This document shows, one piece after another, positions 62,263-64,000 of a DNA stretch of 64,000 nucleotides (positions within the stretch are counted from its first letter, which is position 1; every line of letters begins with the position of its first letter). The position numbers and the translations under genes are program-made. A model generated the notes under the pieces. That model had not been told where the DNA came from. It did not search any database and saw only the letters and a list, made by a program, of their open reading frames with translations. Origin of the DNA: Rhodobacterales bacterium RIFCSPHIGHO2_02_FULL_62_130 (GTDB lineage: Bacteria > Pseudomonadota > Alphaproteobacteria > Rhodobacterales > Rhodobacteraceae); the NCBI GenBank assembly GCA_001828855.1, contig MHZT01000040.1, positions 239,064-303,063 of the forward strand. The letters are read 5' to 3'.

Positions 62263-62288
62263 GTAACACATCCGCCTCTTTCCGCGAA
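62263..62288 (+). promoter_or_regulatory. ECF SigF-like promoter of the bufferin operon
   Basis: GTAACA (62263-62268), 16 bases, CGAA (62285-62288). The Caulobacter SigF consensus, as I recall it, is GTAACC-N16-CGAA and drives a homologous bufferin operon under metal stress. Here five of six -35 bases and all four -10 bases match. Confidence 0.72.
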
Positions 62289-62292
62289 TTGT

Positions 62293-62323
62293 AGGATGAA
62301 GGGCAAACAGGCCCTTCCATCCT
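62293..62323 (+). repeat. Hairpin in the bufA leader
   Basis: AGGATGAAGGGC (62293-62304) pairs with GCCCTTCCATCCT (62311-62323) with one bulged base and a six-base loop, just upstream of the bufA ribosome-binding site. It may stabilise the mRNA or tune translation. Confidence 0.6.
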
Positions 62324-62337
62324 AAAGGGAGATTGAG

Positions 62338-62646
62338 ATGACCGCGATGACGTCCCGCCTGGTTCTTGGTGCCTCGCTTGCTTGCGCGCTTGGCGCGATG
62401 GCGGCAACGCCTGTGATGGCAGAAGACATGGAGAAATGCTTCGGTGTTGCACTGGCCGGGCAGAATGACTGCGCCGCCGGGCCTGGCACGACCTGCGCCG
62501 GCACCTCGAAGGCCGATTATCAGGGCAATGCGTGGAAGCTGGTTCCGGCTGGCACCTGCCTGACGATGGAACTGCCGGCAGCCGAAGACGGCATGATGCG
62601 GGCCGGATCGCTTGAGGCGCTGGAGCGCGACGTTCCGAAAGCATGA
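62338..62646 (+). CDS. bufA1: Bufferin precursor peptide BufA1 (DUF2282)
   Basis: A 102-residue precursor with a signal peptide ending near VMA (residue 28). The core has the DUF2282 pattern with Cys34, Cys45, Cys53 and Cys74: [30 protein letters not shown] and PAGTC. Known bufferins are exported, cysteine-modified by an MNIO enzyme (BufB) and buffer copper in the periplasm. AAGGGAGA seven bases upstream supports the ATG. A hairpin with T-run follows. Confidence 0.9.
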
Positions 62647-62653
62647 TGAAAAT

Positions 62654-62684
62654 GGGCGCGCGGTCACACGCGCGCCCGCTTTTT
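62654..62684 (+). terminator. Attenuating terminator between bufA and bufB
   Basis: A perfect 9-bp stem GGGCGCGCG/CGCGCGCCC (62654-62662 with 62669-62677), a six-base loop and TTTTT at 62680-62684. It would keep precursor mRNA in excess over the modification enzymes. Confidence 0.85.
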
Positions 62685-62700
62685 GGAAAGGGGACAGGAC

Positions 62701-63546
62701 ATGCTGCCAGCCTTGGCCGGAGTGGGTTTCAAACCCGACCATTTCGCCGCGATCCGCAAGGATGCTGCGGATGTCGGTTTCTTTGAAATCCATGCCGAGA
62801 ATTACATGGGCGAGGGCGGGCTGCCCCATGCCCAGCTTGCGGCGATCCGGTCGGACTATCCGCTGTCCATCCACGGGGTTGGCCTGTCGATCGGAGGTGC
62901 GCGGGGGCTGGATGCCGATCATCTGGAGCGCCTGCGCCGTCTATGTGACCGCTATGAACCCGACAGCTTTTCCGAGCATCTGGCATGGTCCAGCCACGGG
63001 GCGGAGTATCTGAACGATCTGCTGCCGCTGCCCTATACCGGGGAAACCCTTGGGCTGGTCTGCGATCATGTTGACCACGTTCAATCCGTGTTGCGGCGGC
63101 GGATGCTGCTTGAGAACCCCGCGACCTATCTGTGTTTTGCACAATCGACGATCCCCGAGACCGAATTTCTGGCCGAGGTGGCGCGCCGGACGGGATGCGG
63201 GTTGTTGCTGGATGTGAACAATGTCTTTGTGTCCTGCACAAATCACGGCACCAATTCGCGCGACTGGCTGGCGGCAATTCCGTTGCATCTGGTTGGGGAA
63301 ATCCATCTGGGGGGCCATGATACCGAGGAGTTGCCCTCTGGACCGCTGCTGATCGACAGTCATGGTGCAGCCGTCGCCGATCCGGTCTGGTCGCTTTATG
63401 CCGAGGTCGTGTCAAGGATCGGGCCTTTGCCGACCTTGGTTGAATGGGACAACAATCTGCCCGACTGGCCTGTGCTTTTGGCCGAAGCGGCGCGGGCGGG
63501 GGCCATTCTTGCGGCAAGGGGGGCTGGCCTTGCCCGCGCATCCTGA
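62701..63546 (+). CDS. bufB: BufB, MNIO (DUF692) peptide-modifying enzyme
   Basis: A 281-residue multinuclear iron oxygenase of the DUF692 family that modifies BufA cysteines. Motifs are [63 protein letters not shown] and [11 protein letters not shown], which carry the His/Asp/Glu iron ligands. The ATG at 62701 follows AAGGGGA. The stop overlaps the bufC start. Confidence 0.93.
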
Positions 63547-64000
63547 CTTTGTATTCGGATTTGATGCTGCCCTGCGCGGCGGGGCGCTGCCAACCGGCCT
63601 GATCGCGCGCGACATGACCGAGGTGGAGCGTCGCTTTGCCGTCTATCGTAACAACGTGGCGGTCAGCCTGTCCGAGGCGCTGGCTGCGCGCTTTCCCGTG
63701 ATCCGGCGGCTGGTGGGGGAGGCGTTCTTTACCCCGCTTGCCCGGCTTTATGCGGAAACCGACAGGCCCAGAACGCCGGTGCTTGCGGAGTGGGGTGCGG
63801 GGTTTGCGGGATTTCTGGAAGGCTTCCCCCCCTTGGCGGCCTATCCCTATCTGGCCGATGTGGCGCGCATCGAATTTGCACGCGGGCGGGCCTTCCACGC
63901 TGCCGATGCACCGCCTGTCGCGCCCGAGATCCTTGCCGTGGCCGATCCTGAACGGATCAGGCTGATGCTGCATCCTTCGGTGATCCTGTTGCGGCTTCGC
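63530..64000 (+). CDS. bufC: BufC partner protein (DUF2063), 5' part only
   Basis: The first 157 residues of a DUF2063 protein that helps BufB in peptide modification. It starts at a TTG (63530) with AAGGGG 9-10 bases before, inside the end of bufB. Typical segments are [71 protein letters not shown]. The gene continues beyond the window end. Confidence 0.88.

What the first reader, a model, noticed from the sequence alone, without database searches (positions are those of the whole stretch)
62263..64000. Bufferin operon: copper-buffering modified peptide with BufB and BufC
bufA1 (DUF2282 precursor with signal peptide and four core cysteines), bufB (MNIO, DUF692) and bufC (DUF2063) lie in order with overlapping ends. 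This is a recently described class of ribosomally made, post-translationally modified metallophore. Seen: motifs and order. Known: bufferins of Caulobacter bind copper. Inference: the same role here. Differences in the core peptide could give other metal preference.
Basis: partly seen in the sequence, partly recalled or inferred. Interest (0 to 1): 0.72.

Follow-up and report, generated by a model that had tools for sequence, protein, structure and literature searches.

The report
Copper-buffering peptide operon with redox pair
This looks like a known kind of bacterial copper-buffering peptide operon, here with its own stress switch and, unusually, with two genes for a membrane-crossing thiol-reducing relay built into the same unit.

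Summary
In detail: a type-1 bufferin operon starts at an ECF16/sigma-F-type promoter motif (62263-62288) and runs bufA (62338-62646, DUF2282), bufB (62701-63546, MNIO; above NCBI's BufB cut-off) and bufC (from TTG 63530, cut by the window end). "Overlapping ends" is true only for bufB/bufC; bufA and bufB are 54 bases apart, with a strong hairpin between them. Beyond the window follow, on the same strand with gaps of at most 15 bases, doxX (bufD), ccdA (DsbD-type membrane protein), a periplasmic-type thioredoxin, an ECF sigma factor and its anti-sigma NrsF. The BufA core is ordinary (four cysteines; 36 of 40 consensus positions), so nothing suggests another metal. What is not standard is the embedded ccdA-trx pair: nine bufferin operons in the genome loci I fetched have it (Rhodobacter, Gemmobacter, Paracoccus and unnamed kin), and an annotated Paracoccus plasmid shows it too. 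A sigma-F-controlled DsbD-like/thioredoxin pair is already known in Bradyrhizobium, and bufferin clusters with sigma factor and NrsF are already published; their merger into one operon I did not find in print in the searches I made. New variant of a known kind. Copper buffering and the relay's target are inferred, not shown.

The parts
62263..62288 (+). ECF16/sigma-F-type promoter motif, tGTAACA-N16-CGAA
   Evidence: only exact GTAACM-N16-CGAA match in the window, 0.11 expected; a GTAAC-N16/17-CGAA site lies upstream of bufA in 17 of 24 loci with SigF/NrsF in the stretch and in 2 of 48 without; in the nine eight-gene operons it is exact in 5 and one mismatch off in 4
62338..62646 (+). bufA, bufferin-1 precursor (DUF2282), signal peptide plus four cysteines
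   Evidence: Pfam PF10048 E 1e-25; core against 81 rows including itself
62653..62678 (+). GC-rich hairpin followed by CTTTTT between bufA and bufB, terminator/attenuator-like
   Evidence: z -3.56; 56 of 68 measured bufA-bufB gaps hold a stem that at most 5% of shuffles reach
62701..63546 (+). bufB, MNIO (DUF692) maturase
   Evidence: Pfam PF05114 350.8 bits; NF050167 above cut-off; best solved relative by sequence 3bww, E 1.8e-38
63530..64000 (+). bufC (DUF2063, MNIO partner), TTG start, cut by the window end (whole gene L002:5594-6343, that is to 64279 in window numbering). Outside the window, all on the same strand, window numbering = L002 + 57936: doxX/bufD L002:6344-6784, ccdA L002:6785-7495 (cysteines in INPC and WSPC), thioredoxin L002:7511-7918 (RR start, WCSTC), sigF-like L002:7915-8547, nrsF L002:8544-9185 (cysteines 130, 180, 202)
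   Evidence: Pfam: DUF2063 79 bits; DoxX 66; DsbD_TM 38.3 against 27.1; Thioredoxin 31.6 against 23.5; Sigma70_r2 29.3 against 24 and Sigma70_r4_2 21.1, below its cut-off 25.7; NrsF 131.9. NCBIfam NrsF model not reached, 51.1 of 300. Sequences, junctions

Best explanation
One stress-switched transcription unit makes a periplasmic copper buffer together with the means to keep periplasmic thiols reduced. NrsF in the membrane holds the sigma factor; oxidation or thiophilic metal acting on its cysteines (130, 180) frees it; sigma-F reads the promoter at 62263 and so its own operon. BufA is made; BufB with BufC turns the two middle cysteines into thiooxazoles before Sec export; the mature peptide binds copper in the periplasm. 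The hairpin after bufA lets part of the transcripts end there, so that more precursor than enzyme is made. CcdA takes electrons from the cytoplasm and passes them to the exported thioredoxin, which re-reduces thiols that copper or oxidant has oxidised: most likely bufferin cysteines and NrsF itself (which would switch the response off again). Shown here: gene content, order, promoter motif, hairpin, kinship, and linkage of the redox pair to sigF-nrsF. Inferred from relatives: modification, copper binding, NrsF sensing, use of the promoter. Inference only: the relay's target and the role of the hairpin.
For: Families. One strand, gaps of 54, -17, 0, 0, 15, -4 and -4 bases. Promoter motif; 17 of 24 against 2 of 48 loci, Fisher 3e-9, reversed pattern 0 of 72; in the nine eight-gene operons exact in 5 and one mismatch off, with the same spacing, in 4. 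BufB of the window falls in a 22-row clade (SH-aLRT 98) whose rows are all sigma-linked types; one of them, G231, was so labelled by hand, its contig ending inside sigF. Redox pair: of the 19 sampled family genomes that hold both the thioredoxin (E up to 1e-12) and NrsF (over cut-off), 7 have them within 5 kb (in an eighth, G231, contig ends lie between them); among 80 named thioredoxin loci 6 have buf plus sigF-nrsF, 4 sigF-nrsF alone, 1 buf alone, 69 neither, 19 of these 69 being cut by a contig end; linked rows need 4 changes on the thioredoxin tree, 15.2 in shuffles. Precedent: B. japonicum EcfF/OsrA controls bll1027-bll1026, a DsbD-like protein and a periplasmic thioredoxin, from GTAAC promoters (PMC3420878, passages). 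Copper and thiooxazole: PMC12452194 (passages and section 14) and PMC12668002 (passages and section 10).
Against: No expression, mass or metal data. Presence of the thioredoxin and of NrsF is not correlated across 394 family genomes (19 with both, about 20.4 expected from 53 and 152): only their adjacency stands out. Of sigF- or nrsF-bearing loci, only 2 of 14 and 1 of 19 (and that one had been picked for it) hold the pair (recount). Close kin lack it: G064, whose BufB lies inside the eight-gene clade, and Paracoccus marcusii and P. aestuarii plasmids; so it is not needed for a bufferin operon. Bufferin's outer cysteines are described as a disulphide (PMC12452194), which a reductant would break. 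The exact promoter motif is missing in 7 of 24 sigF-linked loci and in 4 of the 9 eight-gene operons; genome-wide, exact GTAAC-N17-CGAA sites (7) are fewer than those of the reversed pattern (31).
Confidence: 0.62

Rival explanations
1. Ordinary bufferin operon; ccdA-trx is a neighbour carried along or a general stress member of the sigma-F regulon that serves other periplasmic proteins, for instance a periplasmic methionine sulfoxide reductase.
For: In B. japonicum the pair is proposed to feed a periplasmic MetSO reductase. In a species of the window's own genus (G004) sigF-nrsF stands divergent from MsrB, a DsbD_TM/thioredoxin fusion and MsrA. The window's genome has two MsrB matches, one with an N-terminal MLRRHFL signal-like start (L260). 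Most ccdA-trx pairs lie apart from buf genes: 69 of 80 named loci show neither buf nor sigF-nrsF, 19 of them cut by a contig end.
Against: No msr gene in this operon; the pair sits between doxX and sigF in all nine eight-gene operons (in G231 sigF is only a fragment at a contig end), across Rhodobacter, Gemmobacter and Paracoccus.
Confidence: 0.4
2. The relay's main target is NrsF: it is a negative feedback loop that re-reduces the sensor cysteines and ends the response.
For: Cysteine 180 stands where C179 of B. japonicum OsrA (needed for the H2O2 response) and C181 of Caulobacter NrsF (needed for basal repression) stand by number; the pair also lies next to sigF-nrsF without buf at the locus in 5 genomes (L115, L116, L125, L187, L188).
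Against: Most sigF-nrsF loci lack the pair nearby (12 of 14, 18 of 19; recount), so the feedback is not general.
Confidence: 0.3
3. The peptide serves another metal (chromate, cadmium, zinc, gold) rather than copper.
For: Caulobacter sigma-F genes respond to chromate and cadmium (PMC3511200, passages); gig operons of C. metallidurans and Legionella were linked to gold (title, listing and one passage only).
Against: Core peptide is ordinary; published bufferins and kin bind copper.
Confidence: 0.12

Closest known systems
Bufferin-1 operon of Caulobacter (CC3254-CC3257) with sigF-nrsF (CC3253-CC3252)
   Same: DUF2282, DUF692, DUF2063, DoxX in that order under a GTAACC-N16-CGAA sigma-F promoter, sigF-nrsF next door by gene number (PMC3511200, passages)
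   Different: there sigF-nrsF is an operon of its own, and no ccdA-trx stands in the table of sigma-F genes shown; here all eight genes are colinear. The Caulobacter sequences themselves were not fetched
EcfF/OsrA regulon of Bradyrhizobium japonicum
   Same: ECF16 sigma, DUF1109 anti-sigma with two conserved cysteines, GTAAC promoters, DsbD-like protein plus periplasmic thioredoxin under its control (PMC3420878, passages)
   Different: the redox pair is elsewhere in the genome and was proposed to serve a MetSO reductase; no bufferin gene is named in its Table 3 as shown (some entries are 'hypothetical protein'). Sequence kinship of the two pairs was not tested
Captophorins (fontiphorin, oxazolin, gonophorin)
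   Same: MNIO plus DUF2063-type partner, thiooxazole copper ligands (PMC12668002, passages and section 10)
   Different: EGKCG-repeat precursors rather than a DUF2282 precursor
Paracoccus liaowanqingii plasmid NZ_CP040764 locus (annotation only)
   Same: DUF2282, DUF692, DUF2063-type, DoxX, DsbD_TM, thioredoxin, sigma, DUF1109 in one row
   Different: DoxX and the DsbD_TM protein are one reading frame there

Membership tests
Bufferin 1 (Buf1) | DUF2282 precursor with signal peptide and four conserved cysteines | tested here: met
   Pfam 89.9 bits against 22.4; cysteine spacing. The signal peptide was judged by eye; no NCBIfam model matches BufA
Bufferin 1 (Buf1) | MNIO enzyme encoded next to it | tested here: met
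   (equivalog MNIO_BufB above cut-off)
Bufferin 1 (Buf1) | DUF2063 partner and DoxX | tested here: met
   Pfam. NCBIfam HvfC and HvfX models stay below cut-off (52.8 of 142; 53.7 of 80)
Bufferin 1 (Buf1) | thiooxazoles on the middle cysteines and copper binding | not testable with these tools
   needs mass spectrometry and metal binding
ECF16 sigma-F/NrsF module | ECF sigma with DUF1109/NrsF anti-sigma next to it | tested here: met
   Pfam; NCBIfam NrsF model below cut-off (51.1 of 300)
ECF16 sigma-F/NrsF module | two conserved cysteines near 130 and 180 of the anti-sigma | tested here: met
   cysteines 130, 180 and 202; published positions 131/181 and 129/179; correspondence by number, no alignment with those proteins was made
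ECF16 sigma-F/NrsF module | GTAAC-N17-CGAA target promoter | tested here: met
   motif only; transcription not tested
CcdA/DsbD-type electron relay | DsbD_TM membrane protein with two membrane cysteines plus exported thioredoxin with CxxC | tested here: met
   INPC, WSPC, WCSTC; RR and WCxTC invariant in 17 sequences; export judged by eye
CcdA/DsbD-type electron relay | electron transfer to a periplasmic substrate | not testable with these tools
   needs biochemistry

The most novel reading that the evidence does not exclude
A bufferin system that carries its own dedicated trans-membrane thiol reductant: CcdA and thioredoxin restore oxidised bufferin (or free its copper by changing its redox state), so that the peptide is a re-usable, redox-cycled copper buffer, with sigma-F/NrsF reading the same thiol state.
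Probability: 0.25. Interest if true: 0.62.

Novelty: new variant of a known kind. Interest (0 to 1): 0.4.

Why it matters
Bufferins are newly described; how copper is released after export, whether the peptide is re-used and how its thiol ligands stay reduced in an oxidising compartment are not answered in the passages that I read. An operon that adds a thiol-reducing relay and the sigma-F switch to bufABCD makes those questions directly testable in one unit, and it joins two branches of the sigma-F/ECF16 response (metal buffering and thiol or methionine repair) that I saw described only apart.

Tried and rejected
(1) Unusual metal preference from the core peptide: rejected, the core is ordinary. 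(2) Co-occurrence of thioredoxin and NrsF over the family as evidence for a link: tested and not found (19 genomes with both against about 20.4 expected); only adjacency was used. (3) A clean sequence mark of linked thioredoxins: for a while DFW against DFK before WCxTC looked like one, but G212 and G425 have NrsF with a DFK type, and L189, L237 and L243 are DFW without sigF-nrsF at the locus; dropped. (4) Further sigma-F targets in the genome: 7 exact GTAAC-N17-CGAA sites against 31 of the reversed pattern, so apart from the buf site they carry no weight. (5) Conserved neighbours of the ccdA-trx pairs in 80 named loci: the clustering of stop-to-stop frames gave many frames opposite to genes and mixed neighbours; no functional hint taken. 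(6) Paper search for hairpin and terminator: the word-start match caught 'buffering', useless; so did.

L172 is a wild row in that tree (branch length 10). One search left out L183 (same record as L113); too. L114/G231 was labelled as an eight-gene operon by hand because its contig ends inside sigF. One search measured 68 of 72 bufA-bufB gaps (one of 15 bases and three over 250 left out). One search used the 72 bufA loci fetched by place, not the 80 named loci; the eight-gene ones among those were looked at afterwards.

Statements on print: 'thioredoxin' and 'DsbD' do not occur in the main text of PMC12452194 nor 'hairpin'; 'thioredoxin' and 'DsbD' do not occur in PMC12668002; whole words MNIO and thioredoxin together: 0 papers; NrsF, sigma factor and CcdA together: 0 papers; DUF2282 and thioredoxin: 2 papers, of which I saw passages of one, PMC3511200, and the listing of the other. 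Supplements were not available, the tool says that subscription papers are mostly missing, and the first bufferin paper was not read.

Full report
What is there. In the window, bufA lies at 62338-62646 (Pfam DUF2282, 1e-25), bufB at 62701-63546 (PF05114, 5.3e-105) and bufC from TTG 63530 to the window end. NCBI's curated model for bufferin maturases, MNIO_BufB, is passed (386 bits, cut-off 310). The window lies in G000:C40:239064-303063, so the genome could be read on (locus L002; window position = L002 + 57936). After bufC come doxX, a DsbD_TM protein (ccdA), a thioredoxin, an ECF sigma factor and NrsF. The junctions are tight: 54 bases between bufA and bufB, bufB and bufC overlap by 17, bufC/doxX and doxX/ccdA abut, 15 bases to the thioredoxin gene, then two overlaps of 4 bases. 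The next gene that I recognised after nrsF, a glycosyltransferase, is on the other strand. The unit is therefore eight genes long. Scores of some parts are modest: sigma region 4 is below its Pfam cut-off, and the NCBIfam models for HvfC, HvfX and NrsF are not reached.

The promoter motif. The finding's first base, 62263, begins GTAACA-N16-CGAA, one mismatch from the sigma-F site GTAACC-N16-CGAA of Caulobacter (PMC3511200, passages) and an exact match to the ECF16 consensus GTAAC-N17-CGAA as quoted in PMC8315932 (passages). It is the only exact hit in the window (0.11 expected) and ends 49 bases before the bufA start codon. I asked whether the motif goes with the sigma factor in relatives: of 72 bufA loci fetched by place, 24 have SigF or NrsF in the stretch and 17 of these have the motif upstream of bufA, against 2 of 48 without (Fisher 3e-9); the reversed pattern is found in 0 of 72. 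One of the two exceptions is G231, whose contig ends inside sigF. In the nine eight-gene operons described below the site is exact in 5 and one mismatch off, with the same spacing, in 4. Counted over the whole genome the motif is not enriched (7 exact sites, 31 of the reversed pattern).

Distribution. DUF2282 occurs in 30 of 61 genomes searched as relatives, the window's own included, and in 182 of 246 family genomes (at least 90% complete asked for), so a bufferin precursor as such is common here. BufB relatives are also found on 353 of 72,556 plasmid records, the best at 76% identity on a Paracoccus plasmid. In the window's own genus 4 of 14 other species have DUF2282, and the three of them with a BufB in the tree (G002, G010, G014) showed no sigF in the stretch read. 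The BufB tree puts the window in a clade of 22 rows (98 SH-aLRT), all of sigma-linked types, apart from a larger group mostly without sigF (quick tree, 36 of 72 forks open, some long rows outside the family). Two lineages within one genus suggest transfer or differential loss; I did not test which.

The redox pair. The thioredoxin has an invariant RR near its start and an invariant WCxTC site in 17 aligned sequences. Relatives at E up to 1e-12 occur in 152 of 394 family genomes. A ccdA gene is found at 20 of 20 thioredoxin loci and at 97 of 99 (not at L196, cut by the contig end, nor at L255). NrsF occurs over its cut-off in 53 of 394 family genomes. The two do not co-occur more than chance (19 genomes, counted by hand from the two tables; about 20.4 expected), but where both exist they are adjacent far too often: 7 of 19 within 5 kb, an eighth (G231) split over contigs. 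Among 80 named loci (the best 80 of 443) 6 have the eight-gene operon (Rhodobacter amnigenus HSP-20, Rhodobacter sp. CACIA14H1, a Gemmobacter nectariphilus MAG, a Rhodobacter MAG with the contig length of G281, Paracoccus saliphilus, P. gahaiensis), 4 have ccdA-trx divergent from sigF-nrsF without buf at the locus, 1 has buf divergent from ccdA-trx, and 69 have neither, 19 of these cut by a contig end. With the window, G282 and G231 that makes nine different eight-gene operons. Their thioredoxins stand together in the tree (seven of them, the window included, in a starred set of 98), and linked rows of all kinds need 4 changes where shuffles need 15.2 (few columns, quick tree). A tenth operon, on a plasmid of Paracoccus liaowanqingii, came up in annotated records. 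In G424 the pair lies convergent to bufD. G064 has bufABCD-sigF-nrsF colinear without the pair although its BufB lies inside the eight-gene group: a likely loss. P. marcusii and P. aestuarii plasmids show the same six-gene order. Of loci with sigF or nrsF, 2 of 14 and 1 of 19 hold the pair, so it is an uncommon addition.

What it means. ECF16 systems with NrsF-type anti-sigma factors respond through cysteines near 130 and 180 (PMC3420878 and PMC3511200, passages); the window genome's NrsF has cysteines at 130, 180 and 202. In B. japonicum the EcfF regulon holds bll1027-bll1026, a DsbD-like protein and a periplasmic thioredoxin, and the authors speculate that they feed a MetSO reductase. In G004, a species of the window's genus, sigF-nrsF stands divergent from MsrB, a DsbD_TM/thioredoxin fusion and MsrA, with a GTAAC-N16-CGAA site on that side. 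So thiol relays recur beside this sigma factor, and here the client next door is a bufferin. The most economical reading is a combined response: buffer the copper, and re-reduce what it oxidised. Whether the relay acts on bufferin, on NrsF, on a periplasmic MsrB (the genome has one with a signal-like start) or on all is open. Against bufferin: its outer cysteines are described as a disulphide (PMC12452194 section 14), and the bufferin operons seen here mostly do without the pair.

The hairpin. Between bufA and bufB lies a hairpin of 10 pairs, 9 of them GC, followed by CTTTTT (folding z -3.56). In 68 measured bufA-bufB gaps, the window's included, 56 have a perfect stem whose number of GC pairs is reached by at most 5% of shuffles of the same gap (55 of 61 in the family, 1 of 7 outside it); by folding energy the signal is weaker (32 of 68 below z -2), and only 19 of 68 have four or more T in the eight bases after the stem. 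A partial terminator that sets the precursor-to-enzyme ratio is the likely role; an RNA stabiliser is the alternative. I saw no mention of it in the passages that I read, but did not read the first bufferin paper.

Novelty. Bufferin operons, and Buf1 clusters with sigma factor and NrsF, are published (PMC12452194, passages and section 14), which also says that additional conserved genes occur in extremely low proportions. The merger with ccdA-trx into one sigma-F operon I did not find in print with the searches named under Tried and rejected. I rate it a new variant of a known kind, of moderate interest.

Noticed in passing
L262:8067-9233 (Paracoccus liaowanqingii plasmid NZ_CP040764): DoxX and the DsbD_TM (CcdA) protein form one open frame of 388 aa with both Pfam domains; could be a true fusion or a sequencing slip near the DoxX end.
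   Followed up: partly
L141:3598-6500 (G004, same genus as the window): sigF-nrsF divergent from MsrB (with a signal-like start), a DsbD_TM/thioredoxin fusion and MsrA, with a GTAAC site in between; no DUF2282 match in that genome.
   Followed up: partly
L167:2950-8575 (G000:C44): HlyD-type adaptor, AcrB-family pump and an outer-membrane-factor-like gene (the last judged by eye) with a GTAAC-N17-CGAA site (G000:C44:98549-98574) just upstream; such sites are no more common than the reversed pattern in this genome, so only a lead.
   Followed up: partly
window:60130-60260: Short in-frame tandem repeats (GQTASGGNLCA-like on one strand) at the junction of a phosphoesterase gene and a glycosyltransferase gene, seen in the ORF list; limits approximate.
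   Followed up: no
L065, L068, L081: Tandem bufA copies before one bufB.
   Followed up: no
L033, L034, L036 against L002: Species of one genus carry two different bufferin lineages, with and without the sigma-F motif.
   Followed up: partly
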